Origin: Cinclus cinclus
Taxonomy: Eukaryota; Chordata; Aves; Passeriformes; Cinclidae
Direction of reading: 5' to 3'
Assembly (NCBI RefSeq): GCF_963662255.1
Contig: NC_085080.1
Coordinates: 310,001 to 374,000, forward strand
Length of the DNA: 64,000 nt
The notes under the pieces are model-generated. The model saw nothing but the letters and a program-made list of their open reading frames with translations. It had not been told where the DNA came from and ran no database searches. Below, in pieces: positions 1 to 64,000 of this stretch (positions are counted from its first letter, which is position 1; every line of letters begins with the position of its first letter). Made by a program: the position numbers and the translations under genes.

Positions 1-3000
1 CCGAGTGCCCTGAGCCTGCTCGGGATAATTCCTCTGGGCTGTGCTGGTCTTGTACGAGCTGTGCCTGCACTGCCAAGCAGCAGAGATGGCAGCTCAAGGC
101 TGAGCAGGGCTCAGGCCCAGAGGCACAGCAATTACCTCCTGTGACTGTGCCTGGCATCGCCTCCCTTCCTGCAATGGAGATATTTCTTCTTCCAGGAAAT
201 GCTTCCTTCAGCACAGCCTCCCCATCCACTTCTGGTGGGAGAAAAAGGGACAGCTGGATGAGATGGAACCGTTCCCCATTGGGAAGGTGGTACCTTCAGG
301 AGGCAATGCTTATGAAAGGCATTGATAAGGATCAGGAAAAGGCCCAGGCTCTTCAGGCTACCCACAGCACTCCACTCTCCAAACAGCTGCCCCTTCTAAT
401 CTAGCCCAAGTCCAGGAAATTTTAGGGGATCCCAGGGTGTGTATGAGCCATGGAACAGTTTGGGCTCCCTGTCAGCTGATGGCAAATGCCTTCCTGCAGA
501 GGCTGGGGAGAAGCTGCAGCCAGCCCAGGCTGGGAAACAGCCCTGCAGGTTGTGACAGCAGCAGCAGTGGGGCTGAGAGGCTGCCATGGATCCCTTCCCA
601 CTGTGCTGGGCAATGCGTGTCCAGATGTGCAGAAAAAGCCCCCAGCTGCTGAGTCTCAGGAGAAAGCTGAGGGAAATGCACCCACCACGCCCTTTCTGCA
701 ATTCCTTCAAAATTGGTTCCAGGATGTCATTTGAATCAAGCGCTTCCTTCTCTCCTCTAAGTTTGTTCATCCCTCTTGGAGGACCTTAACAGAATGTCGT
801 TCCATTTCAGATGAATGGATCCCACAAAAGCAGTGCTCAGCCTGTGGTGTCAGCAGGGACACACGACTCACCCCTGCCACGGGAGATGGGCTTGGGTGCA
901 GCAACCAGACCAGGAGCTGGAGAAATCCTCCCTGCAGACACACCTGTAACTCAACAGCCACAGAAGCTTCTGTCACCTGCTGCCTGCCAGGTTGTCAATG
1001 ATTATTCCTTGGTGGCACAGTGAGAACATACCTGCAGGAGGCTCCAAGGGCTTCAAAACTTTATGCAGCCAAGGTAATGGAGAAGCATTCCCAGGAAGCT
1101 CACCTGGAAGAGAGCACTGATGAGAACCATTTCCATGGTGTGCTGGGATCCCCTTCTGCCTTAGGAAACTGGGCTCTGCAGGGGGCTCGGGTAAGGATTT
1201 GGGAGCCAGATGTGAATGGACATGGCCGAAGCTGCAAAGGGGCCTGGGGAGCTCTGGGCTGGCTCTGGTCATTCTGCCCACTCTTTCCATGCACTCTGCA
1301 ACATCTCTGCAGGGGCAGCTGGTCAAGCCCAGGGCTTGTTGGGACACTCTCCCTCCCTTCCTGTGACATAGCCCAGCACAGAACTGGTCTTCCGAGTGCC
1401 AGCCCCTCCCAGGTTTTGAGCAGTGTCTCCCCCAGAGGAACCCTAGCGGGACTGCTCAGTACCCGAGTGCCCTGAGCCTGCTCGAATAATTCCTCTGGGC
1501 TGTGCAGGTCTTGTGCGGGCTGTGCCTGCACTGCCAAGCAGCAGAGATGGCAGCTCAAGGCTGAGCAGGGCTCAGGCCCAGAGGCACAGCAATTACCTCC
1601 TGTGACTGTGCCTGGCATCGCCTCCCTTCCTGCAGCCGAGGTTGGCACAGAACCACTGCTTCCTCCGGGAAATGCTTCCTTCTGCACAGTCTTTCCTTTC
1701 ATTTCTGCAGAAAGGAAAAGGGACAGCTGGATGAGATGGAAACGTTCCCCATTGGGGAGGTGGCACCTTCAGGACACAATAATTTTGATAGACATGGATA
1801 AGGGACAGAAAGCACCGAGGATTTTGGGACCCTCTGAGGCTGGTCACTTCTCCAAACAGCCCCTACACCTGAACTACCATGAGGCCAGGAAATTACAGGG
1901 GATCTCAGGGTGTGCATGGCCCATGGTGCAGTTTGGGCTCCCTATCAGCTGATGCCAAATGCCTTCCTGCAGAGGCTGGGGAGAAGCTGCAGCCAGCCCA
2001 GGCTGGGAAACAGCCCTGCAGGGTGTGACAGCAGTAGTAGCATGGCACAGAGACTGCCATGGATCCCTTCCCACTGTGCTCGGCACGGCATGTCCAGATG
2101 TGCAGAGAAAGTCCCCGGCTGCAGAGTTTCAGGAGAAGGCTGAGGGAAATGCACCCACCTTGTCCTCCCTGCAGCATTTCCTTCAGCATTTGCTGCATGC
2201 CTTCGGATGGATCCAGGGACATCTTGAGCGCTTTGTCTCGGATATTTCCTGTTGGAGGTCCTTAAAACAAAGTAGTTCAATTTCCCAGGAATGGATCCCT
2301 CAAAAGCAGTGCTCAGCCTGTGGGGTCAGCAGGGACACACTACTCACCCCTGCCATGGGAGCTGGGCTTGGGTGCAGCATCCTGGCCAGAATTTGGAGAA
2401 CTCCTCCCTGCAGACACACCTGTAACTCAACAGCCACAGAAGCCTCTGTCATTTCTGCTGCTCTGCATGGGCAGGACTGAGCCACAGGAGCTGTGAGGGG
2501 ATTGCACAGGGCGAGGGCACACACGTGCACGGCTCTGTCCTGGCACATGCAGCGATGCCCCCCTGGCCCAGCTTTGGGCTCTGAGCTGGCAGCTCCCCCA
2601 GGGGGAAAGGCCTTGACCTACCCTCACCATCTCCCAGAGGCTCAGTCCTGGATGTAGGTTGGGAAGCCAGAGCACCTTCCCCAACAGGTTCATCTGCAAA
2701 GAAAGGCAGGACAGAACAGTTCCCAGCACTGCAGGAGATGCTCAGGCTGCCTGGGGCTGGCAAAGGAGCCCCACAAGGCACATCCCTGGGCAAAGCCCTG
2801 GGCCCTTCCCTTCCCTCTCTGCTCTTCTCCATGGCTGCACACAGCACATGGAAGGACACACTGGCATTGTGCATGGGAAGAGGACTGACAGCTAAATGCT
2901 CCTTCCTCCCACTGACAGCAATCCTGTGGGATTACTTGGGGCTCCAGAAGAGAGAGGGCAAGGATTCCAGAAACCATCAACCCTGAGATGATCTTAAGGG

Positions 3001-3492
3001 AAATGGGACACAAGTGAGCTCTTGCCACATTGACACTGCTTATTCTGTCAGGAAGAGGGAATTGAGAACTTGCCTCCAACATCCTCCAAGAACTTGAAAC
3101 CATCCTTCACTACAACATCCAGAAAACCCATGTCCTGATCCCCATCTAGAAGGGAACACAGATCAGAACCATTTCCATGGTGTGCAGGGATCCCCTTCTG
3201 CCTTAGGGATCTGGGCGGTGCAAGGGGCTTGGGTAAGTCTGTGGGACCAGATGTGAATGGACATGGCCAACACTGGTTGTTCTCTCCCTCCCACAGAGGA
3301 AAGCCTCCCTTGAGAGGTATGGAAAACCATCCCCAGAGCTTCCTGGGGAGAATGCAGCGCTGTCCCCAGAAAGGGGAGCCAGGCCATGGGCTCACCTGCT
3401 CCCTTCACTTGCCACGGAGCTGCCTGGGCAGCCCTGGCAGGCAGGGTCACTGCCAGGAGGAGCAGGAGGAAGAGTTGCAGAGGAAGGCCCAT
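1..3492 (-). CDS. 5' part of a cassette-exon type I membrane/secreted protein gene (unrecognised family), runs off the left edge
   Basis: I do not recognise this gene. Reading the minus strand, I see a chain of short exons with GT-AG borders (one GC donor), all stop-free and all joined in phase 1: signal-peptide exon 3396-3492; C 3074-3145; D 2628-2693; E 2348-2419; A 2159-2248; B 1597-1704; C 1032-1103; E 872-943; A 686-772; B 136-231. The first exon encodes a typical secretion leader (MGLPLQLFLLLLLAV...). The remaining exons form two cassettes, C-D-E-A-B and C-E-A-B, of about 115-135 residues each. They are rich in Ser, Gly, Pro, Lys and Glu, with almost no Cys and no domain I can name. Possible N-glycosylation sites are N-A-S in the second C exon and N-I-S in the second B exon. 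The 3' end lies beyond position 1. By comparison with the gene at 56206-64000 it should end in a transmembrane and a cytoplasmic exon. The exon model is inferred; phase consistency across ten exons is strong support. Confidence 0.72.
3396..3492 (-). CDS. signal-peptide exon of the left cassette gene
   Basis: The ATG reads from 3492 on the minus strand. The coding part is 97 nt and ends in phase 1 at a GTGAGC donor. It encodes a short N-region, a leucine-rich hydrophobic core and small residues before a likely cleavage site (LPARAAQA), as expected for a secreted or type I membrane protein. No other start in this exon gives a leader of this type. Confidence 0.75.
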
Positions 3493-7768: not shown

Positions 7769-8224
<456 letters not shown>

Positions 8225-38746: not shown

Positions 38747-38749
38747 TAC

Positions 38750-40460: not shown

Positions 40461-41918
40461 GATGCCGTGATCCCCATCCACAAGATGATCCGTGAGCTGG
40501 AGGGCCAAGGAGTGGTCAACAAAACCCACTCACCCTTCAACAGCCTCATCTGTCCTGTGCGTAAGTCTGACGGAGAATGGAGATTGACTGTGGACTATCG
40601 TGCATTGAATGAAGTGACTCCACTGCTGAGCACTGCCGTGCCGGACATGCTGGAACTCCAGTACGAGCTGGAGTCCAAGGCAGCAAAGTGGTATGCCACC
40701 ATTGACATTGCCAATGCATTTTTCTCCATTCCTCTGGCAGAAGAGTGCAGGCCTCAGTTTGCTTTCACCTGGAGGGGCGTGCAGTACACCTGGAACCGAC
40801 TGCCCCAGGGGTGGAAACACAGCCCCACCATCTGCCATGGACTGATCCAGGCTGCACTGGAAAAGGGTGAAGCTCCAGAACATCTGCAATACATCGATGA
40901 CATCATTGTGTGGGGGAACACGGCAATGGAAGTATTTGAGAAAGGAGAGAAGATCATCCAGATTCTGCTGGGAGCCGGTTTTGCCATCAAGAGGAGCAAA
41001 GTCAAAGGTCCTGCCCGAGAGATCCAGTTCCTGGGAGTAAAGTGGCAAGACAGGCGGCGCCAAATCCCCACTGAGGTCATCAATAAGATCACCGCGATGT
41101 CTCCACCAGCCAACAAGAAGGAAACACAAGCTTTCCTAGGTGCCATAGGCTTTTGGAGAATGCACATTGCTGAGTACAGCCAGATCGTGAGCCCTCTCTA
41201 CCTGGTCACCCGGAAGAAGAATGAATTCCACTGGGGCCCTGAGCAGCAGCAAGCCTTTGCCCAGATCAAGCAGGAGATCGCTCATGCTGTAGTCCTCGGC
41301 CCAGTCAGGACGGGACCAGAGGTGAAGAATGTGCTCTACTCTGCAGCCGGGAACAAGGGCTTATCCTGGAGCCTTTGGCAGAAGGTACCTGGTGAGACCC
41401 GAGGCCGACCCCTGGGATTCTGGAGTCGAAGTTACAGAGGGTCTGAAGCCAACTACACCCCAACAGAGAAGGAGATCTTGGCTGCTTATGAAGGAGTTCA
41501 AGCTGCCTCAGAGGTGATTGGCACAGAAGCACAGCTCCTCCTGGCACCCCGACTACCAGTGCTGGGGTGGATGTTTAAAGGGAAGGTCCCCTCTACCCAC
41601 CACGCCACCGATGCCACATGGAGCAAGTGGATCACCCTCATCACACAGCGCGCCTGTATCGGAAACCCTAATCACCCTGGGATTTTGGAAACAATTACAA
41701 AGTGGCCAGAAGGTGAAAATTTTGGTCTTGCCAATGAAGAGGAGCAAGAACAAGTGACCCGGGCTGATGAAGCCCCGCCATACAACCAACTGCCAGCAGA
41801 CGAAACTCGCTATGCTCTTTTCACTGATGGTTTCTGTCGCATCGTGGGGATGAACCGGAAGTGGAAAGCAGCCGTATGGAGTCCCCGTATGGAGGCAAGT
41901 TCTCAGAGCACTTCCTGA
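40461..41918 (+). pseudogene. ERV-L-type reverse transcriptase, truncated in RNase H
   Basis: A long open frame (usable Met at 40467) carries the RT core: SPFNSLICPVRK, a YRALNEVTP stretch, LPQGWKHSPTICHGL and the catalytic YIDDIIVWG. The thumb and connection follow, then the first motif of RNase H (YALFTDGFC) just before the frame ends at 41918. The rest of RNase H, integrase and the 3' LTR are missing. Sequence of the cassette-gene family begins within about 100 bp, so the element was cut at this junction. The RT frame looks well kept compared with the minus-strand provirus. Confidence 0.8.
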
Positions 41919-42494
41919 CTCAAAAATCATTCTCGGCATGGCAAGAGCTCACTCCTGTGATGGTTCCCTTTACATAATCTCACGGTTGAGGGATTTGGGA
42001 AACCTTGCCCTGCTCCTTCTGCAGCCCTGACTGATCCCACGGCATTGCTGTCAGTGGGAGGCAGGAGCATTCAGCTTGTCAAACTTATTCTCGTTAGTAA
42101 TGCCAGTTTCTCATTCCATGTGCTCTATGCAGCCATGGAGAAGAGCAGAGAGGGAAGGGAAGGGCCCAGGGCTGTGTCCCGGGGTTGTGCCTTGTGCAGC
42201 TCCTTTTGCTGGCCCCAGGCAGCCTGAGCTGCTCCCACTGCTGCTGCCAAGCCCTGGCCCTGGCTGGGGCCGGGATCAGAGATGCTGGCAGTTCCAGGCA
42301 GTCCTTTCTCCCATGACAGCCTCACATGGGGCTCCATCCATCCCAGTGTGGGGCACTGCAGGCACGTGCTCCCTCTGCCCCTGCTCCTGAGTGGAAGGCA
42401 GAGCTGGGGGAGTGCCTTGGAGCACTCACTGCACTCATTGCCACTGCAGCCTGAAGGAGAAATGGAACTTCTTTCCATTAAGGTCCTCCTAGCA

Positions 42495-44663
42495 AGAAGA
42501 ACCAAGCCAAAGGAGACAAGAAATCTCTGGAGGCATCTGAACTTTTGGACAAGATGCTGAGTGATCTGGAGAGACGCCGTGGTGGGTGCATTTCCCTCAG
42601 CCTTCTCCTGAGACTCATAGCAGCCTTACTGCCCTGCTGCTGCTGTCACACCCTGCAGGGCTGTTTCCCAGCCTGGGCTGGCTGCGGCTTGTCCCCAGGC
42701 TCTGCAGGAAGGCATTTGGCATCAGCTGACAGGGGGCCGAAACTGCAGCATGGGCCATGCACACCCTGAGATCCACTGCAATTTCCTGATCTCTGGGTAG
42801 ATCACGAGGGGTGGTGATTTGGATAAGAGAGAGCCCTGTCACAACCCCTTTAACATGGGACTTTACCCCATCCTTATCCATGACTTAAACAAGCATTGCC
42901 TCCTGAACATGTCACCTCCTCGAATGGTGAATAGCTCCATCTGATCCATTTATGCCTTTTCCTTTTTCACGTAATAGAGCAAAACACTGTGCAGATGCTG
43001 TCATATCCTAGAGGAAGCAATGGCTCTGGGCCATGGTCTGAAGAAGGAATGGAGGAAATGCCAGGCACGGGCACAGGCACAGGAGGTAATTGCTGTGCCA
43101 GGCTCAGCCCTCGGCAGGGCTGTGTGGCAGCAGCTCTTCCCCCAGGGCCTGTCCTTGCACAGCCTGGGAGCAGCCAAAGCTGGAGGCGCCTCGGCTTCGA
43201 GGCCTCTGGAGCTCGTTCCCAGCCCCTGGGAAACGGGACTCGTGCACCAAGGTCCCTCCCTCTGCAGCTGCTCCTGGAGCTGCCCTGAGTGCCCAGAGGC
43301 CCAAGGCACAGGAGCAGCCCCGAGTGGGAGCCCTGCCACGGGCCCAGGGCCACAGCCAGCCCTGGCTCCTGACTGGGCAGGGGCTGCCCTGGGTCCTGAC
43401 AGGGCCTGACTCTGTCCCCTTGGGCTGGGGGAGCTGTCACGGGGCAGGGAGGGTCGGGGCTGGCAGTGGCTGCTCAGGGATGGCTTTGGCCCGGGTCCCT
43501 GGAAGGAGTGAGTGCCCAAGCAGCTGCACTGGCCCCGGGCTCTCCTCCTCCCGGCCTTCTGGGCTGTGTTGGGTGGCACAGCCTGTGCCAAGGGATGGCA
43601 AGGTGCCTGCAGGCCCCATCTCTGGGGGAAACAGAGAATGTCCTGGCCGTATCCAGCGAGCTGCCAGCTCAGCAGTGGAGCACAGCACGGGCTCACGCTC
43701 CCCATTGCTCCCACAGAAGCACTTGGCAAGTCAGATGCAGATGCTGAGAATCCACCGAGCACCCCAAGAGTTTTCTGCCCCCAGGATGTGCGCAGGACCT
43801 GCATGATAGGCACAGTAGTGACACTGTTCACTGTGCCACTTGCCATGGTCCTGTGCTATGTCGGGTTCCGGTGGTGGAAGGGAAGAAAACAGTAAGTTTT
43901 TGCTGTTGGTCTCTATGCTCCAGCTACTTCAAAGGCTTTTGGTGGTCAGGAAACACTCGCAGTGAGGCTGCTGTGGAGTTGTGGATGGTCAGTGGTTGTG
44001 CACATAACTGTGCTGAGGGTTGTGCTGCTGCCCAGTGCTTTAATTGGCCTCTTAATTGCTGGGCCTTGTCCTTTGGAGCCCGCTGGGGCTGCAGGCAGTG
44101 CTGGCTGCCACTGAGGCTGCGTGGGCAAGAGCAGCCCCAGGAGCAGCGGGCAGAGGCAGAGCAAGGTGGGGAGGAGAAAGAGCAGGGAGCAGATTGCCCT
44201 TGAAAGGCAGACGCGCTCTGGGGCCCGCTCCTGGCCAGGGACCCTGCCCAGAGCCATCCCCTGCTCGGCAGGGCCTTGAGGGGCAGCTGTCCAGCTGGGC
44301 CAAGGTGTGCCAGCAGCTCCAGCCGTGCTGGGGAGCCTTGCCAGCTCTGGGCCCTGCTGTGCACGAGGGTCCCTGTGTGCCACCGGCAGCTGGGGCCTCA
44401 GACACTCCTCTCTCCTCAGTCGCCCTGCTGCAGCTCCAGCACCCTGGCCAAGAAGGCGCCACTCTCCGTCGCCCCCAGGGAGCCCAAGGACCGTCCGGTT
44501 TGACAGCTCTCAGACATGGCCTCAGCGGCAGCAGTCACCCAGGAAGGCAGAACACCAGCCCTCCGTGCCTCCCCCACGGCCCCCCAGCCCAGCTATGAAG
44601 CGGAAGCCCCCCGAGATCCCCCCACCTCCACCCCTGCCGAGCCAGCCGCCCTGGTCCAGCTAG
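42495..44663 (+). CDS. 3' half of a third cassette-gene family member (membrane protein with proline-rich tail)
   Basis: Four exon homologues are visible on the plus strand: A 42495-42581, B 42978-43085, transmembrane 43717-43891 and terminal 44420-44663. Phases match those of the minus-strand genes and the frame is open to the TAG at 44661-44663. The transmembrane exon has one hydrophobic helix (MIGTVVTLFTVPLAMVLCYV) followed by basic residues. The tail is proline-rich (SVPPPRPPSPAMKRKPPEIP and PPPPPLP) and could bind SH3 or WW domains (inference). The A exon's acceptor AG is replaced by CA, so it may be skipped; being symmetric, skipping would not shift the frame. Upstream exons are absent and the ERV-L fragment takes their place, so there is no signal peptide. 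It may be a pseudogene or rely on another promoter. Confidence 0.6.
43090..43710. repeat. intron segment shared with 57068-57690 (inverted) and partly 60925-61200
   Basis: The intron between the B and transmembrane exons is almost identical, in reverse orientation, to the corresponding intron of the right-hand gene. Its first 280 bp also recur downstream of another B exon at 60925-61203. Such intron identity points to recent duplication or gene conversion. Confidence 0.75.
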
Positions 44664-47020: not shown

Positions 47021-49195
47021 TCAGAGTTCCCTCGTGTCAGTCTCTAATTTTTCTAACATTTCCCATGCTGCATCCAGCTTTTTGCACTCTTTCTCAAATT
47101 TTCTTAGCTTTCCTTGTGCTAGGATGTTTTCTTTGCATTCAGTCAATGTTTTTTCGGTTCCTTTCCCTTGAATGTGAGCGGATTGTGCTTTTAGTAGCAT
47201 CAAGGAATTCAGTTTCCCTTTTGCTGCCAATTCTGGGTCCATGGGCATTGCTGTAAGTTGCATTCCCTGAATTACTGAGCGCATCAGTCTAATAATACAG
47301 GCTATTGTACAGGGCAAAAACAACAATCCTAAGACAGAACACAGTAACATGAATCCCATTTTTTTCCACCAAACACCCCCAGAAAGATTATCCCACCCAT
47401 CAGCTTTTACAAGAGAATTCCATTTTGGAACAGGTACATGTGCCACTCTTTTATTTCATCAGCAACTTTTGTGATGGCTTCCCCATGATCGTCTATTTCC
47501 ACACAGCACTCAGATTCGTTAAACCTCCTACAAACTCCTCCTTCTTCTGCCACCAAGTAATCTAGGGTAATTCTGGTTTGATATACAAACGCTCGCATTT
47601 GTGAATGCTGCTTAGCCAGCAACTTTAAAGCATCAGACGTATGGTTTGAAACAACTTCAACTACTGCCTGGAGCCTTATCAACAGATTTAATAGATAAAT
47701 TGGAGTTCTATATCCCCAAGACCCATCCTCAGCCCAAGTAGCTGGGTCATAATATGCTATAATTCTTTCTGCAGGCCATTCTTCTCCTCCCGGTTTTTGG
47801 GTTCCTCCCGCATTTGGAAAGTCAAGGTTTAAGGCTCTTTTATTTCTTTCTAGGGTTTCATGAAGAGGTGTTCCTAGTAGATTGCCCCTAGAGCTTGGTA
47901 GGACAAAGAAGGAGAGTTGTATAACTCCCAAGGTATAAGTTCCTTCCCACTTTTGGCGTAGTTCACTGTATGCCCCTTGCCCACAAATCCAATCTATTCC
48001 ACCAGGGGCTTTCCATATGTTTTCCATTTTATCTGGTTGTACCCAATAAGATTTTAGGTCTTTTATGGATTGGTAGGGGTTAGCTCCAGGACTTTTATGC
48101 CAGCACAAATCAGTTTGATTATCCCATTCACAGTCCATTTCTTTTGTTACTCCCCAGTATCCAGTAGGAATTTGGGGTCACCAGGTCTTGGTGTTATTAT
48201 CTGAGTTTACTACTGAAGTAGATACGCAAGGAGTACATCCTACCACTTCACTGTTTTTCCTCCCTTCCCGAGTTATGCAAACTGTTCCAATTACTTGGTG
48301 ACTCAAAACCCTTCCCTCAGGCCGCTTTAGTGTCTTAGAAATTTGAGTATGATTCCATTTTAAAAATTCTTCTGGAGCTAAACTCTCACCTCTCCATGGC
48401 CCTCTTTCAGCCATTCTAAGTCCTCCACAAATCCAGCATTTGGACACTCCCAATTGTGGGGCAATTTCTTGCATCAAATCTACAAAACGGTTCTTATTTG
48501 AGGTTGGCAAGTCCCAATTGCTACAGTGCTCTTTTAATTATTTATACAGCTCATTTAGTTCCTCTAACTCTTTCCCTCTGATCTTTTTCTTATCCCTTTT
48601 TATTTCTTCTTCTTTTCCATTTATTTTCTTAATGGGCACCTTTCCATTCTCATCTTTTTCAAATCAAAGGAAATTCTCATACCTAGGACAAAGTTGATTG
48701 CTGTTAGGATAAAGAGCTTGCCCATTGAATCCTAAATTTCTCCTTACACAATACATTTTGTGATTCTTCACACAAATTTCTAAGAAACTGTTTTGATCGT
48801 AACAGGCAGCACTAGCATGTGGATGCTCCACAAAAATAGATTCCATCTTATCCCTGACCCACATGGAGTGATTGCATCTGTCACAGGGATTGGGAATAGT
48901 TTGTTTCTTTATTGCTGGCTCTTGTGCTGCTTGTCTTATTATAGTTAGTTCCTGCATTGTTCACTTGGCTTGTTCACTTCTTATTTCTTGGACTCTGTTC
49001 CGTGCAGCCAGTTGCCAGGGGTATCATAATAAGCACAGTGAAAACAATCCTCAGGAATTTTAACTTTCTACCTTTCTCAAGGCCCCTTGGGTTGCAACCA
49101 AGGGCCGAGATGTCAATCTTCTCAGTAGCAAAGCTTTTCTCCTGGGATTTGTTTCCTTTTGGTACCCTTGGCCTCATAAAGTTTGGATGAGCCAT
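47021..49195 (-). pseudogene. gammaretrovirus-like env, broken
   Basis: Env parts lie in order on the minus strand. A hydrophobic leader ends near 48974 (LKFLRIVFTVLIMIPLATG). Surface-subunit pieces follow, including a CWICGG motif (CWLC-type) at about 48440. A long open transmembrane-subunit piece spans 48138-47407, with an immunosuppressive-like stretch (TRITLDYLVAEEGG) followed by C-X7-CC as I count it. The membrane anchor (MGFMLLCSVLGLLFLP) and tail run to 47021. Stops and frame changes separate the pieces, so no full Env can be made. The layout matches gammaretrovirus-type envelopes known in vertebrate ERVs. Confidence 0.75.
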
Positions 49196-49199
49196 TTTA

Positions 49200-50190
49200 A
49201 CTTTTTCTGTTCCAAAGATGGCACAAATTATTTTTAGTTCTGCAGCAGTGCCCTATCTCTCCCTAGATTAATCAGCTGGTTTTCTTAATCCATTAAAGCT
49301 CCAGAGATATGCTACTACAACAAGATTTGCTTGCACACAATTTCAGTTACCAGTCCTTTTTACTGCTTCTTTTTCTGCTATGAAGTCAGGGTTAATTATT
49401 AAATCTTGGTCACCACCAATAGACACACTCGCAATGCCAGTCTGTGTCACAAACGAGTCTATGGCGTGGCACATAGATATTTTTCCCACAACAATTGTTA
49501 ATTATGATACACTGGTCTATAATATTATGGATTGTTTGTTCTTTAGCCTGTACAAAAGCTAATATGGCGAGGATTTGTTGATCTTGGTTCTGGATTAGTT
49601 GGATGGCTGCATAAAAGGTCCCATTTTTACGTCTCAATGACGTTCCAAAAAAATCACTAAAATTTTGTTCTAAAGTTAGCTCTTCACGTACTCGACCTAA
49701 ACAAACCAAACAAATTGTCTCTCTTTTTCTTCTGCCCTTCACAACGAATTAAAACAACAGGTGCAAACAACATAAATCCATGGGCAACACTTTTAGCCTT
49801 GCTTAATACATTCCCAGTGTGATAATAGTTTTTGGACCCTCTCAATAACAGGCATTAGCAGTCTCTTTTTCTCAAGCTGCAGCTCCTCCTGTAAGTCAGT
49901 TACTGTTGATTGCTGGAGTCTCCTGAGAAAATTTTCAATTTGCCTGGGCTGTCCCATTGATCAAGGAGGCGTCTAATTCTTTCCCATCAGTGCTGTTCTG
50001 CCTCTAGGCTCAATGGGTTTGCAGTCAGCAGCTAATCCAGGATGCCTAAATTTCAATAATGCATCTCTCAAAACAATTTTAAAGTGGGATTTCAAACAGT
50101 AAATACTAGAAAATAACATTTTTAGTCTTATCAGGGATTCATTGTAATTCCTATGTGGTTTTGAACCTAAATGGAGAGATTGAATCCATT
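49200..50190 (-). pseudogene. pol-env intervening region with decayed viral sequence
   Basis: An open minus-strand stretch (49742-49410) of 110 codons and a charged stretch at 49.95-49.80 kb suggest further viral coding sequence. I cannot assign it with confidence; it may be an early env or accessory part. Confidence 0.35.
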
Positions 50191-50191
50191 T

Positions 50192-51142
50192 TTATGTCCT
50201 TTTTAATCTTACTTGTAGGTCTCCTGCTACTGAAATAATTTCCCAGTCTTTATTTTGTGTTGGTCCTTTTACTTGTGAAGCATGACTCCAGACTTTTTTT
50301 GCCGTTCCGACTGCAGCTTCTGTAGTTAAAAGAACCAGAAAAGGTCCCTCCCATCGGGGTTCTAAACTTTCTCCTCTCCAGCATTTTACAAACTCATACG
50401 GTCCTGGTCGGATAGAATGTATTGGAAAATCAAGAGGAGATGTTTGAGCTAAAATGCCTTTTTCTCTCAATTCCCTCAAATTGTTTGCAATGGTTGTAAT
50501 ATACCCCTGAATGGTTTTGTCCCCAACTAGCAAGGGATCCATTGTCATGACTTGAGGGTAAGGCAGTCCATATAACATCTCATATGGTGGGATCCCAGTT
50601 TCAGAGTGGGGCTTGGTTCTTATATTTAACAGGGCTAAGGAAAGACATCTGGTCAAAGGTAATTTGGTTTCTATCATTAATTTTGTCAGTTGTTGCTTAA
50701 TAGTTTGATTCATCCGTTCAACTCGTCCCGAGCTTTTGGGATGCCATGGGGTGTGATATTCCCAGGTAATTCTTAGTGCTTGTCTAAAATTGTTAATTAT
50801 TCTCGAGGTAAAATGAGTGCCTGGATCTGAATCAATAACCTGTATTAATCCAAATCTTGGAATAATACGTTCCAAGAAAATTTTGGCTGCTGCTTGAGCT
50901 GTTGCCTGAGCCGCAGGAAACACTTCTACTCACGGAGTCAATTGATCTACTATGACCAGTAGATATTTCCACCTGCCTATTCTGGGTACTTCAGTGAAAT
51001 CCACTTGGATCTTTTCAAACAGCCTATAGGCTGTTTGACGGCCTCCAGAGGGAGGACTCCTCAACACCTTTTTGTTCACTTTCTGACATGTGAGACATCC
51101 TTGAATAATCTCCTTCCCAATTTCAAATATTCCTTTGCACAC
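50192..51142 (-). pseudogene. gammaretrovirus-like integrase
   Basis: The minus strand carries the end of the zinc-binding region (GCLTCQKVNK), the catalytic core with all three acidic positions readable (VDFTEV, DSDPGTHFTS, SSGRVERMNQ), and the C-terminal WEGPFLVLLTTEAAV stretch ending at a stop near 50192. One in-frame TGA at about 50930 interrupts it, where a Trp would fit. The front of pol (protease, RT) is missing; an unrelated LTR sits in the gap. The enzyme would insert viral DNA into the host genome; here it is inactive. Confidence 0.8.
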
Positions 51143-55300: not shown

Positions 55301-55305
55301 TGGCC

Positions 55306-55515
55306 TTCCCTTCCCTTCCCTTCCCTTCCCTTCCCTTCCCTTCCCTTCCCTTCCCTTCCCTTCCCTTCCCTTCCCTTCCCTTCCCTTCCCTTCCCTTCCC
55401 TTCCCTTCCCTTCCCTTCCCTTCCCTTCCCTTCCCTTCCCTTCCCTTCCCTTCCCTTCCCTTCCCTTCCCTTCCCTTCCCTTCCCTTCCCTTCCCTTCCC
55501 TTCCCTTCCCTTCCC
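55306..55515. repeat. (TTCCC)42 pentanucleotide microsatellite
   Basis: About 42 uninterrupted copies of TTCCC span 210 bp. All frames are open through it, giving Pro-Ser-Leu-Pro-Phe repeats that are not real protein. The count could be affected by assembly. Confidence 0.98.
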
Positions 55516-55899
55516 TCAGGAGCAGCCCCTGTGCATTTCCCTGGATTGGTGATACCCCATCACTTTGGTCCTGTCAAGTATGTGCTGCTCAGGGAAGACC
55601 TTTGTTCTGCCTGCTGACATTGCTGGTCAGGCTGTGTCCCTACACATGCTCTCAATGGCTTCCCTCAGTTCCTAAGCATGCCAATGGATGAGGCCCAGGC
55701 CCAGATGATGCCATTGAAGGAGATGTGCCCTCAGCCCAGGGACACTCAGCATGGGCTCCCCCAGCCCCTCGGGGCCCCGCTGCTGCTCACAGCAGCCCCT
55801 GCCTGGCTCCTGCCTGCCCACACCGAGGGCATCCATGGCTGCTCCTGGACATGGAGCTCAGCCAGTGCTGGAGCTGTGTGGGCTTAGCTGGTGGTAGCA

Positions 55900-56205
55900 C
55901 CCGGACACTGGGGTGACAACTCCATCACTTTATTGGGATAAAACAATGGGCCATCACCTACCCAGGCAGGGAGTGGAGGGAGGGGGCAGGGATCACCTTC
56001 AGGGCTGTTTAGAGGGCAGGGCCAGGGAGCTTAGGGGCAGAGGAAGGACTGTGTTGGTCTCAGCTGGGGAGGGAGGGTGCTGGGCTGCTACTGCTGAGGT
56101 CTCTAGAACAACATGGGAATGGGTTGGGACATGGCAGAGGGAGATCCTAAAAGGGAGTGAGGGCAGCTTGGAAATACCCATGGGGAGAGGAGATGGCAGT
56201 GGGAT
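55900..56205 (-). other. 3' UTR of the right cassette gene with polyA signal
   Basis: On the minus strand an AATAAA signal (complement at 55929-55934) lies about 270 bp after the TAG at 56208-56206, a plausible 3' UTR length. Confidence 0.55.
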
Positions 56206-56368
56206 CTAGAGGGTAATAGGAGGTTTCCTTGTAGATGGCCATTTTGGGGTCCACTTCTCAGAGCCGTTGTGAGGGCAGCCCAGGCCCTTCTTCCTGCTGG
56301 GGGAGCCGCTGTAGCTGTGTGAGTGTGAGCTGTAGCCGCCGTCCATCATCTGATGTCCAGAGGTGCTC
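56206..56368 (-). CDS. terminal cytoplasmic-tail exon of the right cassette gene
   Basis: 163 nt, entered in phase 2, give a 54-residue tail (first codon split with the previous exon) ending in a TAG. It contains DGGYSSHSHSYSGSPSRKK and a basic C-terminus. It has no similarity to the proline-rich tail of the plus-strand member, although the flanking intron is nearly identical. Confidence 0.7.
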
Positions 56369-59300
56369 CTGAGGAGAGAGGAGTGTCTGAGGCCCCAGCT
56401 GCCGGTGGCACACAGGGACCCTCGTGCACAGCAGGGCCCAGAGCTGGCAAGGCTCCCCAGCACGGCTGGAGCTGCTGGCACACCTTGGCCCAGCTGGACA
56501 GCTGCCCCTCAAGGCCCTGCCGAGCAGGGGATGGCTCTGGGCAGGGTCCCTGGCCAGGAGCGGGCCCCAGAGCGCGTCTGCCTTTCAAGGGCAATCTGCT
56601 CCCTGCTCTTTCTCCTCCCCACCTTGCTCTGCCTCTGCCCGCTGCTCCTGGGGCTGCTCTTGCCCACGCAGCCTCAGTGGCAGCCAGCACTGCCTGCAGC
56701 CCCAGCGGGCTCCAAAGGACAAGGCCCAGCAATTAAGAGGCCAATTAAAGCACTGGGCAGCAGCACAACCCTCAGCACAGTTATGTGCACAACCACTGAC
56801 CATCCACAACTCCACAGCAGCCTCCCTGCGAGTGTTTCCTGTCTACAAGCAGCCATCAAATGAAGATGTGTGTAGGGCAGGGAAACAGAACACTCACCGT
56901 TTTCTCTTGCAGCAACACCAGATTCCAACACAGCACAACATGAAGACAAGTTCCCCGCCAGCCACAATGGCAATTAACTCAAGCAAACAGCGTGTTCCCT
57001 GGCAGACAGCGCTTCCAGTGCCCTTCTGGGAGCTGGGAACACGTCTTGAGGTGTCGGCTGCATCTGTGGGAGCGATGGGGAGCGTGAGCCCGTGCTGTGC
57101 TCCACTGCTGAGCTGGCAGCCCGCTGGATACGGCCAGGACATTCTCTGTTTCCCCCAGAGATGGGGCCTGCAGGCACCTTGCCATCCCTTGGCACAGGCT
57201 GTGCCACCCAACACAGCCCAGAAGGCCGGGAGGAGGAGAGCCCGGGGCCAGTGCAGCTGCTTGGGCACTCACTCCTTCCAGGGACCCGGGCCAAAGCCAT
57301 CCCTGAGCAGCCACTGCCAGCCCTGACCCTCCCTGCCCCGTGACAGCTCCCCCAGCCCAAGGGGACAGAGTCAGGCCCTGTCAGGACCCAGGGCAGCCCC
57401 TGCCCAGTCAGGAGCCAGGGCTGGCTGTGGCCCTGGGCTCGTGGCAGGGCTCCCACTCGGGGCTGCTCCTGTGCCTTGGGCCTCTGGGCACTCAGGGCAG
57501 CTCCAGGAGCAGCTGCAGAGGGAGGGACCTTGGTGCACGAGTCCCGTTTCCCGGGGGCTGGGAACGAGCTCCAGAGGCCTCGAAGCCGAGGCGCCTCCAG
57601 CTTTGGCTGCTCCCAGGCTGTGCAAGGACAGGCCCTGGGGGAAGAGCTGCTGCCACACAGCCCTGCCGAGGGCTGAGCCTGGCACAGCAATTACCTCCTG
57701 TGCCTGTGCCCGTGCCTGGCATCACTTTCCCTCCTGCAGCAGAAGCTGCCACTGAGCCACTGCTTCCTGTGAGAAGTGGCTCCTTCCTCACAGAGTTTTG
57801 GTCCATCACTTGACAAAGGAAAAGGGGCATCTGGATCAGATGGGACTGTTCCCCATTTGGGTGGTAGCATCTTCAGGAGGCAATGATTGGCAAAGTCCCA
57901 GGAAAAGATCAGGAGCAGGCCCAGGCTCTCCAGGCTGGCCAGAGCACTCCCTCCTCTAAACTGCCATCTCTCCTGATCTACCCCAAGAACAGGAAATTTC
58001 AGGGGATCTCAGGATGTGAATGGCCCGTGGGACACTTTGTTCTCCCTATCAGCTGATGCCAAATGCTTCCCTGCAGAGGCTGGGGAGAAGCTGCAGCCAG
58101 CCCAGGCTGAGAAACAGCCCTGCAGGGTGTGAGAGCAGGAACCGTGCAAGATTGCCATGGATCCCTTCCCACTGTGCTGGGCACGGCATGTCCAGAAGTG
58201 CAGAGAAAGCCCCTGGTTTCTGAATCTCAGGAGAAGGCTGAGGGAAAGGCACCCACCTTGTCCTTCCTGCACATTCTTCTGTGTTTGCCTCAGGAATTCA
58301 TTTGCGTCAAGAGACTTTTTGGATCCACTGTCTTGGGACTTGCCTTTCAGAGAACCTTAACAGGAAGTAGTTCCATTTCCCAGGAATGGATCCCCCAAAA
58401 GCAGTGCTCAGCCTGTGGGGTCAGCAGGGACACACTACTCACCCCTGCGATGGGAGCTGGGCATGGGTGCAGCATCCAGGCCAGAATTTGGAGAACTTCT
58501 CCCTGCAGACACACCTGTAACTCAACAGCCACAGAAGCCTCTGTCATTATGCTGCTCTGCATGGGCAGGACTGAGCCACAGGAGCTGTGAGGGGATTGCA
58601 CAGGGCGAGGGCACACACGTGCACGGCTCTGTCCTGGCACATGCAGCGATGCCCCCCTGGCCCAGCTTTGGGCTCTGAGCTGGCAGCTCTCCCAGGGGGA
58701 AAGGCCTTGACCTACCCTCACCATCTCCCAGAGGCTCAGTCTTGGATGCAGGTTGGGAAGCCAGAGCACCTTCCCCAACAGGTTCATCTGCAAAGAAAGG
58801 CAGGACAGAACAGCTCCCAGCACTGCAGGAGATGCTCAGGCTGCCTGGGGCTGGCAAAGGAGCCCCACAAGGCACATCCCTGGGCACAGCCCTGGGCCCT
58901 TCCCTTCCCTCTCTGCTCTTCTCCATGGCTGCACACAGCACATGGAAGGACACACTGGCATTGTGCATGGGAAGAGGACTGACAGCTAAATGCTCCTTCC
59001 TCCCACTGACAGCAATCCTGTGGGATTACTTGGGGCTCCAGAATTGAGTAGGGCAAGGATTCCAGAAACCACCAACCCTGAGATGATCTTAAGGGAAATG
59101 GCACATATGTGAGCTCTTGGAACATTGACTACTTATTCTGTCAGGAATGGCGAATTAAGAGCTTGCCTCCAGCATCTTCCAGCAATTTCAAGCCATATTC
59201 CAGCAGGGCTTCCAAATAATCCATGTCGCGATCCCAATCTAGAATGGAGCCCAGATCAGAAGCAGTTCCTTGGTGTGCTGGGATCCCCTTCTGCCTTAGG

Positions 59301-62300
59301 GAACTGGGCACTGCAAGGGGGTTGGGTAAGGCTGTGGGAGCCAGATGTGACTGGACAGGGCCAAAGTTGTAGAGGGGCTTGGGGAGCTCTGGGCTGGCTC
59401 TGGTCACTCTCTACCCTCTATGCAGACCCTGTGCAACATCACTGGAGAGAAAAATGAGGCAGCCCAGGGCCCACTGGGTGTTGTCCCTCTTCAACAGAGG
59501 AAACACTCCCTAAAGCCCGGGGAAAAAACTGTGCCAGGCAGTGTCAAAACTACACCCCTGTCCTTCCTGCCCTCCCTCCCTCCCTACTTTACTTCCCCTC
59601 TCCTTTCTTCTTTTGCCAGGGACAGATCCCCCAGACCAAGGGGACAGAGGCAGGCCCTCTCAGGACACACTGGAGCCCTGCTCTCCCCCTTTGCCCTTTC
59701 CCCACCATGGGCACCCCTTGCATCCCCACCAGGTTTCAGGCAGTGACTCCAACCGAGGGACCCCAGCAGGACTGCTCAGTACCCGAGTGCCCTGAGCCTG
59801 CTCGGGATAATTCCTCTGGGCTGTGCTGGTCTTGTACGGGCTGTGCCTGCACTGCCAAGCAGCAGAGATGGCAGCTCAAGGCTGAGCAGGGCTCAGGCCC
59901 AGAGGCACAGCAATTACCTCCTGTGACTGTGCCTGGCATCGCCTCCCTTCCTGCAATGGAGATATTTCTTCTTCCATGAAATGCTTCCTTCAGCACAGCC
60001 TCCCCATCCGCTTCTGGTGGGAGAAAAAGGGACAGCTGGATGAGATGGAACCGTTCCCCATTGGGAAGGTGGTACCTTCAGGAGGCAATGCTTATGAAAG
60101 GCATTGATAAGGATCAGGAAAAGGCCCAGGCTCTTCAGGCTACCCACAGCACTCCACTCTCCCAACAGCTGCCCCTTCTAATCTAGCCCAAGTCCAGGAA
60201 ATTTTAGGGGATCCCAGGGTGTGCATGGGCCATGGAACAGTTTGGGCTCCCTGTCAGCTGATGCCAAATGCCTTCCTGCAGAGGCTGGGGAGAAGCTGCA
60301 GCCAGCCCAGGCTGGGAAACAGCCCTGCAGGGTGTGACAGCAGCAGCAGCGGGGCTGAGAGGCTGCCATGGATCCCTTCCCACTGTGCTGGGCATTGCGT
60401 GTCCAGATGTGGAGGGAAAGCCTCTGGCTGCTGAGTCTCAGGAGAAGGCTGAGGGAAATGCACCCACCTTGTCCTCCCTGCATCATTTCCTTCAGCATTT
60501 GCCTCATGACTTCAAGTGGCTCCAGGGATTTCTTGTCTGCCCTGTGTTTGCTCTTATCTCTTGGAGGACCTTAGAGCAAAGTAGTTCCATTTCAGATGAA
60601 TGGATCCCCCAAAAGCAGTGCTCAGCCTGTGGGGTCACCAGGGACACACGACTCACCCCTGTAATAGGAGCTGGGCTTGGGTGCAGCAACCAGGTCAGAA
60701 TTTGGAGAACTCTCTGCAGACACACCGTAACTCAACAACCACTGAAGCTTCTGTCACCTGCTTCCTGCCAGGTTGTCAATGATTATTTGTTGGTGGGACA
60801 GTGAGAACATACCTGCAGGAGGTCCAGAGGGCTTCAAAACTTCATACTGCCAAGCTAATGGAAAAGCCTTCCCTGGAAGCACATCTAGAAGCCAACCAAA
60901 AAGAGAAAATATTCCATTGTGCATCAGGGCTGGCTGTGGCCCTGGGCTCGTGGCAGGGCTCCCACTCGGGGCTGCTCCTGTGCCCTGGGCCTCTGGGCAC
61001 TCAGGGCAGCTCCAGGAGCAGCTGCAGAGGGAGGGACCTTGGTGCACGAGTCCCGTTTCCCCGGGGCTGGGAACGAGCTCCAGAGGCCTCGAAGCCGAGG
61101 CGCCTCCAGCTTTGGCTGCTCCCAGGCTGTGCAAGGACAGGCCCTGGGGGAAGAGCTGCTGCCACACAGCCCTGCCGAGGGCTGAGCCTGGCACAGCAAT
61201 TACCTCCTGTGCCTGTGCCCGTGCCTGCAATCGCCTTTCGTCTTGAAGCAGGGGCTGCTGATGAGCGACTGCTTCCACTGGGAAAAGCTGCCTTCCACAG
61301 AATCTCTATGTCCATCTCTTATGGAGAAAGGAAGGGAGACAGCTGGATCAGATGGAACTGTTCCCCATTTGGGAGGTGGCATCTTCAGGAGGCGACAATA
61401 CTTGTCAAAGACATGCAGAAGGATCAGTAAAAGGCCCAGGTGCTTGGGGATATCACAGGGCTCTCTCTTGCCCAAACCTGCACCTGTCCAGATCTACCCC
61501 AAGACCAGGACATTGCAAGGATCTCAGGGTGGGCCATGGCGCAGTTTGGGCTCCCTGTCAGCTGATGCCAAATGCCTTCCTGCAGAGGCTGGGGAGAAGC
61601 TGCAGCCAGCCCAGGCTGGGAAACAGCCCTGCAGGGTGTGACAGCAGCAGCAGCGGGGCTGAGAGGCTGCCATGGATCCCTTCCCACTGTGCTGGGCACA
61701 CCATGTCCAGATGTGCAGAGAAAGCCCAAGGCTGCTGAGTCTCAGGAGAAAGCTGAGGGAAATGCACCCACCACGCCCTTTCTGCAGTTCCTTCACAATT
61801 GGTTCCAGGATGTCATTTGAATCAAGCGATTCCTTCAGTCCTCTAAGTTTGTTCATCCCTCTTGGAGGACCTTAACAGAATGTCGTTCCATTTCAGATTA
61901 ATGGATCCCACAAATGCAGTGCTCAGCCTGTGGTGTCAGCAGGGACACACGACTCACCCATGCCCTGGGAGATGGGCTTGGGTGCAGCAACCAGACCAGG
62001 AGCTGGAGAAATCCTCCCTGCAGACACACCTGTAACTCAACAGCCACAGAAGCTTCTGTCACCTGCTGCCTGCCAGGTTGTCAATGATTATTCCTTGGTG
62101 GCACAGTGAGAACATACCTGCAGGAGGCTCCAAGGGCTTCAAAACTTTATGCAGCCAAGGTAATGGAGAAGCATTCCCAGGAAGCTCACCTGGAAGAGAG
62201 CACTGATGAGAACCATTTCCATGGTGTGCTGGGATCCCCTTCTGCCTTAGGAAACTGGGCTCTGCAAGGGGCTCGGGTAAAGCTTTGGGAACCAGATGTG

Positions 62301-64000
62301 AATGGACATGGCCGAAGCTGCAGAGGGGCCTGGGGAGCTCTGGGCTGGCTCTGGTCATTCTGCCCACTCTTTCCATGCACTCTGCAACATCTCTGCAGGG
62401 GCAGCTGGTCAAGCCCAGGGCTTGTTGGGACACTCTCCCTCCCTTCCTGTGACATAGCCCAGCACAGAACTGGTCTTCCGAGTGCCAGCCCCTCCCAGGT
62501 TTTGAGCAGTGTCTCCCCCAGAGGAACCCTAGCGGGACTGCTCAGTACCCGAGTGCCCTGAGCCTGCTCGGGATAATTCCTCTGGGCTGTGCAGGTCTTG
62601 TGCGGGCTGTGCCCACACTGCCAAGCAGCAGAGATGGCAGCTCAAGGCTGAGCAGGGCTCAGGCCCAGAGGCACAGCAATTACCTCCTGTGACTGTGCCT
62701 GGCATCGCCTCCCTTCCTGCAGCCGAGGTTGGCACAGAACCACTGCTTCCTCCGGGAAATGCTTCCTTCTGCACAGTCTTTCCTTTCATTTCTGGAGAAA
62801 GGAAAAGGGACAGCTGCATGAGATGGAACCGTTCCCCATTGGGGGGTAGCATCTTCAGGACACAATAATTTTGATAGACATGGATAAGGGACAGAAAACA
62901 CCCAGGATTTTGGGACCCTCTGAGGCTGGTCACTTCTCCAAACAGCCCCTACACCTGAACTACCATGAGGCCAGGAAATTACAGGGGATCTCAGGGTGTG
63001 CATGGCCCATGGTGCAGTTTGGACTCCCTGTCAGCTGATGCCAAATGCCTTCCTGCAGAGGCTGGGGAGAAGCTGCAGACAGCCCAGGCTGGGAAACAGC
63101 CCTGCAGGGTGTGACAGCAGTAGTAGCAGGGCACAGAGAGTGCCATGGATCTCTTCCAACTGTGCTGGGCACAGCATGTCCAGATGTGCAGAGAAAGTCC
63201 CCGGCTGCAGAGTTTCAGGAGAAGGCTGAGGGAAATGTACCCACCTTGTCCTCCCTGCAGCATTTCCTTCAGCATTTGCTGCATGGCTGCAGATGGTTCC
63301 GGGGATTTCTTGACTGCTGTGTCTCGGATCTTTCCCATTGGAGGTCCTTAAAAGAAAGTAGTTCCATTTCAGATGAACAGAATCCACAAATGCAGTGCTC
63401 AGCCTGTGGGGTCAGCAGGGACACACTACTCACCCCTGCGATGGGAGCTGGGCATGGGTGCAGCAACCAGTCCAGAATTTGGAGAACTCCTCCCTGCAGA
63501 CACACCTGTAACTCAACAGCCACAGAAGCCTCTGTCATTTCTGCTGCTCTGCATGGGCAGGACTGAGCCACAGGAGCTGTGAGGGGATTGCACAGGGCGA
63601 GGGCACACACGTGCACGGCTCTGTCCTGGCCCATGCAGCGATGCCCCCCTGGCCCAGCTTTGGGCTCTGAGCTGGCAGCTCCCCCAGGGGGAAAGGCCTT
63701 GACCTACCCTCACCATCTCCCAGAGGCTCAGTCCTGGATGCAGGTTGGGAAGCCAGAGCACCTTCCCCAACAGGTTCATCTGCAAAGAAAGGCAGGACAG
63801 AACAGCTCCCAGCACTGCAGGAGATGCTCAGGCTGCCTGGGGCTGGCAAAGGTGCCCCATGAGGCACAGCCCTGGGCACAGCCCTGGGCCCTTCCCTTCC
63901 CTCTCTGCTCTTCTCCATGGCTGCACACAGCACATGGAAGGACACACTGGCATTGTGCATGGGAAGAGGACTGACAGCTAAATGCTCCTTCCTCCCACTG
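56206..64000 (-). CDS. cassette-exon type I membrane protein gene (unrecognised family), 3' end present, 5' end off the right edge
   Basis: Not a family I recognise. Nineteen exons can be placed on the minus strand: D 63714-63779; E 63434-63505; A 63245-63334; B 62684-62791; C 62118-62189; E 61958-62029; A 61772-61858; B 61204-61317; C 60813-60884; E 60657-60713; A 60468-60557; B 59918-60013; C 59167-59238; D 58722-58787; E 58443-58514; A 58257-58343; B 57695-57808; transmembrane 56898-57063; terminal 56206-56368. All cassette exons are phase 1-1 and stop-free; the last junction is phase 2. The ectodomain is Ser/Gly/Pro/Lys-rich with few Cys. One hydrophobic helix (LLELIAIVAGGELVFMLCCV) precedes CCCKRKR. 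The tail is His/Ser/Tyr/Lys-rich. The A exon at 63.3 kb lacks its acceptor AG, and the E exon at 60.66 kb uses a shifted acceptor that keeps phase. By homology with the left gene, the signal-peptide exon should lie about 0.6 kb past the window. A cell-surface role is inference. Confidence 0.72.
56898..57063 (-). CDS. transmembrane exon of the right cassette gene
   Basis: This 166-nt exon enters in phase 1 and leaves in phase 2. It encodes a short juxtamembrane segment, one hydrophobic helix of about 22 residues and a Cys-Cys-Cys-Lys-Arg-Lys-Arg stop-transfer/palmitoylation-like motif. Its acceptor (CTCCCACAG) and donor (GTGAGT) are standard. The plus-strand homologue is at 43717-43891. Confidence 0.75.
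57068..64000. repeat. tandem array of cassette units; positions 1-2900 repeat 61087-63990
   Basis: Units of roughly 1.1-1.5 kb, each with one C-(D)-E-A-B exon set, are repeated here. Positions 1-2900 match 61.1-64.0 kb at a constant offset of 61086 with few differences, apart from the segment before about 400. That segment instead matches 59783-60180, so the copies differ by exchange between units. Confidence 0.8.

What the first reader, a model, noticed from the sequence alone, without database searches (positions are those of the whole stretch)
56206..64000. Apparently undescribed membrane-protein family built from symmetric phase 1-1 micro-exon cassettes
Nineteen minus-strand exons of 57-166 nt all have usable splice sites or near-sites, stop-free frames and matching phase. 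They form repeating cassettes C-(D)-E-A-B and end in a transmembrane and a tail exon. The cassette exon lengths stay 2+3n+1 even where sequence length varies (A 87/90, B 96/108/114, E 57/72), which is unlikely without selection on frame. I know no family with this architecture. Symmetric exons allow cassettes to be added, lost or skipped without a frame change, so the ectodomain length may vary between copies, alleles and transcripts.
Basis: partly seen in the sequence, partly recalled or inferred. Interest (0 to 1): 0.92.

Follow-up and report, generated by a model that had tools for sequence, protein, structure and literature searches.

The report
Perching-bird surface genes built from cassettes
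This stretch of a perching-bird genome carries part of a large, apparently undescribed gene family predicted to make cell-surface proteins from repeated small exons that can likely be added, lost or skipped without breaking the reading frame, and in two of its copies the last introns are nearly identical while the exons beside them barely match.

Summary
In detail: 19 minus-strand exons (63779-56206) have phase-matched splice sites and open frames, ordered D-F-A-B, E-F-A-B, E-F-A-B, C-D-F-A-B, TM, tail. Exon A measures 99/102 nt, not 87/90. A second copy at the left edge (3492-136) shows the 5' end with a signal-peptide exon; a third, 5'-truncated copy lies on the plus strand (42483-44663). 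Three searches listed 219 related predicted proteins, every readable species a passerine. They share the module order, have no consistent Pfam domain, and isoforms often differ by whole modules. New here: in two copies the last two introns are nearly identical (5/631 and 1/468 differences) beside TM exons differing at 84/166 sites and tails that do not align. Both TM types occur in suboscines too, so these exons are old and these introns were probably homogenised by gene conversion that spared the exons; the A-B intron is not homogenised. Two copies differ by one cassette unit, switching inside an intron. No RNA data were available; tissue and function are unknown.

The parts
63714..63779 (-). 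copy 3 unit 1 exon D (66 nt)
63434..63505 (-). copy 3 unit 1 exon F (72 nt; second acceptor 6 nt upstream)
63245..63346 (-). copy 3 unit 1 exon A (102 nt)
62684..62791 (-). copy 3 unit 1 exon B (108 nt)
62118..62189 (-). copy 3 unit 2 exon E (72 nt)
61958..62029 (-). copy 3 unit 2 exon F (72 nt)
61772..61870 (-). copy 3 unit 2 exon A (99 nt)
61204..61317 (-). copy 3 unit 2 exon B (114 nt)
60813..60884 (-). copy 3 unit 3 exon E (72 nt)
60657..60713 (-). copy 3 unit 3 exon F (57 nt, internal acceptor)
60468..60569 (-). copy 3 unit 3 exon A (102 nt)
59918..60013 (-). copy 3 unit 3 exon B (96 nt)
59167..59238 (-). copy 3 unit 4 exon C (72 nt, GC donor)
58722..58787 (-). copy 3 unit 4 exon D (66 nt)
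58443..58514 (-). copy 3 unit 4 exon F (72 nt)
58257..58355 (-). copy 3 unit 4 exon A (99 nt)
57695..57808 (-). copy 3 unit 4 exon B (114 nt)
57064..57694 (-). copy 3 B-TM intron, 5/631 differences from copy 2
56898..57063 (-). copy 3 TM exon, alpha type (166 nt, phase 1-2)
56369..56837 (-). copy 3 TM-tail intron after its first 60 nt, 1/468 differences from copy 2
56206..56368 (-). copy 3 tail exon, alpha type, ends in TAG
55929..55934 (-). AATAAA downstream of copy 3
3396..3492 (-). copy 1 signal-peptide exon with ATG
3074..3145 (-). copy 1 exon C (GC donor)
2628..2693 (-). copy 1 exon D
2348..2419 (-). copy 1 exon F, unit 1
2159..2260 (-). copy 1 exon A, unit 1
1597..1704 (-). copy 1 exon B, unit 1
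1032..1103 (-). copy 1 exon E
872..943 (-). copy 1 exon F, unit 2
686..784 (-). copy 1 exon A, like copy 3 unit 2
450..650 (-). switch zone in copy 1 A-B intron: unit 2-like before, unit 3-like after
136..231 (-). copy 1 exon B, like copy 3 unit 3
42483..42581 (+). copy 2 exon A
42978..43085 (+). copy 2 exon B
43717..43891 (+). copy 2 TM exon, beta type
44420..44663 (+). copy 2 tail exon, beta type, proline-rich, ends in TAG

Best explanation
The 19 exons are the 3' part of one copy of a multigene family, seen only in passerine birds among the listed hits, that is predicted to make single-pass type I membrane proteins whose ectodomain is a chain of repeated phase 1-1 units (C or E, sometimes D, then F, A, B) followed by a membrane exon and a tail exon. 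Shown in the sequence: the exon order, the open frames, and two copies that differ by one unit with a switch inside an intron. Shown in relatives' predicted proteins: the same grammar with 0 to 6 A modules, and isoforms that differ by whole modules. Inferred: because every cassette exon is symmetric, unequal crossover or conversion in similar introns adds, removes or recombines units without a frameshift, and exon skipping does the same in transcripts. Inferred: gene conversion has recently homogenised some introns between copies, while selection, or the exon divergence itself, kept the alpha and beta membrane and tail exons apart. Predicted, weakly: the ectodomain is a mostly disordered, almost cysteine-free stalk with short helices, with cysteines near the membrane, and the two tail types would couple to different partners inside the cell. 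Tissue and ligand are unknown; a role on germ or immune cells is a guess.
For: Exon models and frames. Relatives: 149, 120 and 229 hits, of which 120, 120 and 120 were listed, 219 distinct proteins, every readable species name a passerine (order looked up for two species, the rest recalled). Grammar: 1719 of 1967 adjacent module pairs are one of ten canonical steps; of 219 proteins 113 have the signal peptide, 160 a TM, 88 both (the HMMs were iterated on the first 120 of these proteins). Isoforms: in 11 of 16 loci compared the differences include whole modules or units, e.g. exactly E-F-A-B (122 aa) or C (25 aa). Unit difference: at 240 informative sites copy 1 follows copy 3 unit 2 down to about 650 and unit 3 from about 450. 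Introns of copies 2 and 3: 5/631 and 1/468 differences against 84/166 in the TM exon, with tails and 3'UTR not alignable (Fisher p 6e-110 uses a forced tail alignment). Both TM types are old: window beta TM 35/52 identical to a suboscine beta, window alpha TM 25/54 and 27/54 to suboscine alphas, cross-type matches weak (9 relatives chosen). Silent sites in exon A: 33 of 93 fourfold sites at amino-acid-identical codons differ, flanks 0.120 (15 pairs of 6 exons). The intron is not frozen between species: a Ficedula model that reads through its end differs at 13 of 47 residues, some of them in the TM exon. A control inverted duplicate in the window is evenly 0-4% diverged.
Against: No RNA evidence; relatives and isoforms are gene predictions, and 5 of 16 loci show no clean module difference. 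Homogenisation is local: the A-B intron of copies 2 and 3 differs at 91 of 388 sites with 68 gap columns. In matching units of copies 1 and 3 exons are not more diverged than introns: 27 of 591 exon sites, leaving out the crossed-over B exon, against 116 of 2098 intron sites. Fourfold sites of F (2/76) and B (14/133) are no more diverged than flanks (0.102, 0.116, 6 of 15 and 9 of 21 pairs passed the flank filter). For 16 relatives plus copy 3, a module of another species beats all modules of the same protein in only 43 of 72 A and 38 of 77 B cases. The alpha tail was not recognised in the two suboscine alphas tested. Structure models are low-confidence (mean pLDDT 56.4 and 48.1). Comparisons inside the window are few and not independent.
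Confidence: 0.74

Rival explanations
1. The TM, tail and A exons differ because positive selection sped up their change, while the introns simply evolved at the neutral rate since duplication, as described for some venom genes (recalled).
For: Exon F has more non-synonymous than synonymous change (pooled pN 0.146, pS 0.057) and exon D likewise (0.030, 0). Exons exceed introns in several paralogous comparisons.
Against: In exon A silent fourfold sites are also far more diverged (33/93) than the flanks (0.120). The divergent TM block runs about 60 nt into the intron. Alpha and beta TM types occur in suboscines and oscines, too old for introns that differ at 6 of 1099 sites.
Confidence: 0.12
2. 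The near-identical introns are an assembly or haplotype artefact, with the end of one copy wrongly placed in inverted orientation.
For: The two blocks are inverted and over 99% identical in a repeat-rich window with other inverted duplicates.
Against: An artefact would copy exons as well as introns; here the identity stops at exon edges and both exon sets have close relatives in other species. The other inverted duplicate shows no such islands.
Confidence: 0.07
3. The last two introns are held identical by strong function, for example splicing control or an embedded regulatory RNA.
For: They are nearly identical between copies, and parts of the B-side intron recur after other B exons.
Against: A Ficedula read-through model differs at 13 of 47 residues at the end of this intron (which paralog it is, is unknown). 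No Rfam family is found.
Confidence: 0.05
4. The array is a set of decaying pseudogenes.
For: Copy 2 lacks a signal-peptide exon in the window and runs into retrovirus-like sequence. No expression data.
Against: 30 of 30 internal exons are open in frame, exon indels keep the frame, splice sites and AATAAA are present, and full-length relatives are predicted in many species.
Confidence: 0.06

Closest known systems
Micro-exon genes (MEGs) of schistosomes
   Different: MEG exons are mostly 36 bp or shorter; here they are 57-114 bp in a fixed repeated order with a membrane and a tail exon, in birds. No sequence link was seen or specifically tested.
Primate L/M opsin pair (gene conversion in introns, exons kept apart)
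   Same: Exon divergence above intron divergence, with duplication placed earlier by exons than by introns (abstract of PMC3213168).
   Different: There it is two genes with functional tuning sites (abstract); here end exons barely align beside introns over 99% identical, in a many-member family, and only some introns show it.
Paired immune receptors (Siglec-11/16, CEACAM)
   Same: Related surface proteins with different membrane and tail parts, shaped by gene conversion (search listing and abstract starts).
   Different: Those have Ig-like ectodomains (recalled); here no such domain is found, and it is introns, not ectodomain exons, that are shown to be homogenised.
Chicken BG genes and tropoelastin (recalled, no call)
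   Same: Many short symmetric exons that vary in number or are skipped.
   Different: BG repeats encode a cytoplasmic coiled coil in 21-nt exons; tropoelastin is secreted. Neither was compared by sequence here.

Membership tests
Passerine 'uncharacterized LOC' cassette family (e.g. LOC130258357, LOC127473534) | Module order SP-(C D or E)-F-A-B repeats-TM-tail | tested here: met
   Copies 1 and 3 follow it as far as the window shows; 1719 of 1967 adjacent pairs in 219 relatives do
Passerine 'uncharacterized LOC' cassette family (e.g. LOC130258357, LOC127473534) | Sequence homology along most of the protein | tested here: met
   Best hit E 2.3e-198, 62% identity over 88% of the query
Passerine 'uncharacterized LOC' cassette family (e.g. 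LOC130258357, LOC127473534) | Transcribed and spliced as modelled | not testable with these tools
   No RNA data held; isoforms are predictions
Micro-exon genes | Coding sequence mainly in symmetric exons of 36 bp or less | tested here: not met
   Symmetric, but 57-114 bp
Micro-exon genes | Exon skipping gives in-frame protein variants | tested here: inconclusive
   Predicted isoforms differ by whole modules in 11 of 16 loci; no reads
Paired immune receptors | Ig-like or lectin ectodomain | tested here: not met
   No Pfam family above its cut-off in 3 window models; in 30 relatives two families matched one member each, neither an Ig or lectin domain; no PDB relative of the profile at E 0.1
Paired immune receptors | Same ectodomain with different membrane and tail types | tested here: inconclusive
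   Alpha and beta types exist, but exons A and B of copies 2 and 3 also differ
Opsin-like exon-sparing gene conversion | Intron divergence below silent exon divergence, with exon types shared across species | tested here: met
   Exon A and the TM exon in this genome; not met for exons B and F
Opsin-like exon-sparing gene conversion | Intron trees group copies by species | not testable with these tools
   No intron DNA of related species held; one read-through protein only

The most novel reading that the evidence does not exclude
Passerines carry a germline exon-cassette engine: many surface-protein genes whose introns are repeatedly homogenised within the genome and so serve as interchangeable recombination zones, while symmetric exons of ancient, distinct types are shuffled, added and dropped between genes, giving each species, and perhaps each individual, its own repertoire of cell-surface stalks with two alternative signalling tails.
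Probability: 0.33. Interest if true: 0.9.

Novelty: new variant of a known kind. Interest (0 to 1): 0.74.

Why it matters
A large protein family that seems confined to perching birds, more than half of all bird species (recalled), sits in public annotation as 'uncharacterized', 'mucin-4-like' or 'PERK1'. It is a natural test of how symmetric exons let genes change length without breaking. It also offers an extreme case of introns over 99% identical beside exons that barely match, so that the question of what stops gene conversion at exons becomes testable by reading these introns across species. If the proteins sit on sperm, egg or immune cells, which is not known, they would be candidates for fast-evolving recognition.

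Tried and rejected
Rejected as too weak: TM_ErbB1 and LTXXQ (below their cut-offs), SKA2 and TM_ErbB1 (one of 30 relatives each), weak NCBIfam matches far below cut-off, and a fractalkine-fusion PDB match (E 0.0075). Names such as bassoon-like, mucin-4-like, PERK1 and prophenin look like low-complexity labels (my judgement). No structure-library search was run because both models are low-confidence. No tRNA and no Rfam family. My first exon list missed the F exons; relatives' proteins revealed them. A first reading of the exon excess as positive selection alone was given up for exon A and TM when silent sites proved diverged too; exon F may still show it. The high divergence of exon B between copy 1 and copy 3 unit 2 is explained by the crossover. 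Papers: six LOC numbers gave no paper; searches for a passerine family of this kind listed none that describes it by title or abstract start. Of papers I saw passages of PMC8293314, PMC13060935 and PMC4377847, the abstract and outline of PMC3213168, and search listings for the rest. The chromosome of the window could not be told; within Oenanthe hits lie on contigs of 20.6 and 148 Mb.
Full report
What is there. On the minus strand from 63779 to 56206 there are 19 exons with AG acceptors and GT donors (GC in exon C), all cassette exons 0 mod 3 with phase 1-1 boundaries and open frames. The order is D-F-A-B, E-F-A-B, E-F-A-B, C-D-F-A-B, TM, tail; TAG ends at 56206 and AATAAA begins at 55934. Anything further 5' lies beyond the window. 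The 5' end is seen in a second copy at the left edge: ATG and signal peptide at 3492-3396, then C-D-F-A-B-E-F-A-B to 136. A third copy on the plus strand (42483-44663) keeps A, B, a different TM exon and a different, proline-rich tail. Upstream of about 41890 it runs into a retrovirus-like reading frame (my reading; that frame was not scanned), and no signal-peptide exon was found upstream on that strand.

More than chance? In the phase-1 frame 30 of 30 internal exons are open; the other two frames are open in 10 and 15. Between copies, exon indels were multiples of 3 in 9 of 9 cases, intron indels in 5 of 19 (some events counted twice). The strongest check lies outside the window: three protein searches found 149, 120 and 229 hits, of which 120 were listed each time, 219 distinct proteins in all. 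Every readable species name, 29 genera by my count, is a passerine, oscines and suboscines alike; the weakest hit, whose list was complete at E 0.001, still is. Two species were looked up, the rest are recalled; 29 and 109 further hits were not shown, and one name was cut off. Each search scored only about 8000 candidates.

Grammar. Module HMMs seeded from the window's exons and iterated on 120 relatives parse all 219 proteins (none with fewer than two modules); 1719 of 1967 adjacent pairs are one of ten canonical steps (F-A, A-B, E-F, B-E, B-C, D-F, C-D, B-TM, SP-E, SP-C); 113 carry the signal peptide, 160 a TM, 88 both, these 88 with 0 to 6 A modules. Modules with cysteine: A 24 of 473, B 16 of 470, F 5 of 458, C, D and E none, TM 160 of 160. 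Of 160 TM modules 105 have the alpha C-x4-C pattern, 40 the beta pattern, 15 neither. Exon F has acceptors 6 nt apart; by a pattern count 40 of 451 F modules in relatives show the two extra residues.

Isoforms. In 16 loci with two or more listed isoforms, 11 include differences of whole modules or units: for example E-F-A-B (122 aa) in Cyanistes LOC111941835, C (25 aa) in Pipra LOC113993965, steps of 119-120 aa in Manacus LOC127473534, B against F in Passer LOC135307656; 5 do not. For the two largest loci each isoform was compared only with the first. These are predictions; that such isoforms largely reflect transcript evidence is recalled, not tested.

A unit gained or lost. At 240 informative sites copy 1 is like copy 3 unit 2 from 1103 to about 650 and like unit 3 from about 450 to 1, with the switch inside the A-B intron. 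The copies thus differ by one unit and the frame is intact; the direction of change is unknown.

Old exons, young introns. Copies 3 and 2 lie in inverted orientation, their TM exons about 13 kb apart. Their B-TM introns differ at 5 of 631 sites without gaps; the TM exons at 84 of 166; the next 60 nt at 27 of 59; the rest of that intron at 1 of 468 with one gap column; tails and 3'UTRs do not align beyond chance level. A control inverted duplicate (29850-33304 against 7734-11081) is evenly 0-4% diverged. The beta TM is 48/57 identical to Oenanthe and 35/52 to a suboscine; the alpha TM 43/54 to Oenanthe and 25/54 and 27/54 to suboscines; cross-type matches are weak. So the two TM types are older than the oscine-suboscine split; the beta tail is found in the suboscine too (40/74), the alpha tail is not. 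A Ficedula model that reads through the end of this intron differs at 13 of 47 residues. The likeliest account is recent gene conversion of the last introns that spared the exons.

Limits of that account. The A-B intron of copies 2 and 3 is not homogenised (91 of 388). In matching units of copies 1 and 3 exons are not more diverged than introns once the crossed-over B is left out (27 of 591 against 116 of 2098). Exon A shows old silent divergence (33/93 fourfold sites against 0.120 in flanks); B and F do not. For copy 3, 8 of 8 A and B modules are closer to a module of another species than to any other of the same gene; over 16 relatives plus copy 3 this holds for 43 of 72 A and 38 of 77 B, and the nearest one sits at the same place from the end in 37 and 32.

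Protein. No Pfam or NCBIfam family passes its cut-off in the members scanned, none recurs in 30 relatives, and the profile has no PDB relative at E 0.1. Models are low-confidence: in beta protein P0122 helices at the signal peptide, exon A (69-100) and TM (155-189); in alpha protein P0014 mainly the signal peptide, exon C (35-53), short stretches further on, and TM (458-500). A flexible stalk is my reading; function beyond that is a guess.

Known or new. The genes exist as predictions, but my paper searches listed no description (open-licence PMC only). The nearest known kinds are schistosome micro-exon genes for the architecture and the primate opsin pair for exon-sparing intron homogenisation. 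I call it a new variant of a known kind.

Noticed in passing
window 21965-22345 (-): A 40-residue kinase piece matches PAK3 and PAK1 (E about 5e-10; the top row there is a designed repeat protein without a passing stretch); the surrounding frame gave no Pfam hit. Songbird PAK3-like genes form large arrays on the zebra finch Z (passages of PMC13060935).
   Followed up: partly
window 7734-11081 and 29850-33304: Inverted duplicate, mostly 96-99% identical, with C2H2 zinc-finger coding sequence in both arms.
   Followed up: partly
window 38138-41918 (+) and 47021-50929 (-): Retrovirus-like reading frames; only an integrase piece at 50192-50929 was confirmed by Pfam. The plus-strand frame runs into the end of exon C of copy 2 with a short shared stretch at the junction.
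   Followed up: partly
window 3073 and 59166 (-): Exon C has a GC donor (GGAG|gcaag) in both copies.
   Followed up: yes
relatives' TM modules and window 56898-57063: By a crude pattern 46 of 86 oscine non-beta TM stretches hold an acidic residue inside the membrane, 4 of 35 suboscine and 0 of 39 beta; copy 3 has one (GGELVF). It could pair with a basic partner.
   Followed up: partly
window 3493-3597 (-): The stretch upstream of the signal-peptide ATG resembles N-terminal extensions of predicted relatives (P0201: 52 of 69 over 3597-3391; also P0108), so it is conserved leader sequence or is translated.
   Followed up: no
Manacus candei LOC127473544 (P0074, P0101, P0102, P0118): Listed isoforms differ in the TM exon, some also in the tail, suggesting alternative ends at one locus.
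   Followed up: no
window 55304-55516: Perfect (CCTTC)n array of about 43 copies some 400 nt past the AATAAA of copy 3.
   Followed up: no
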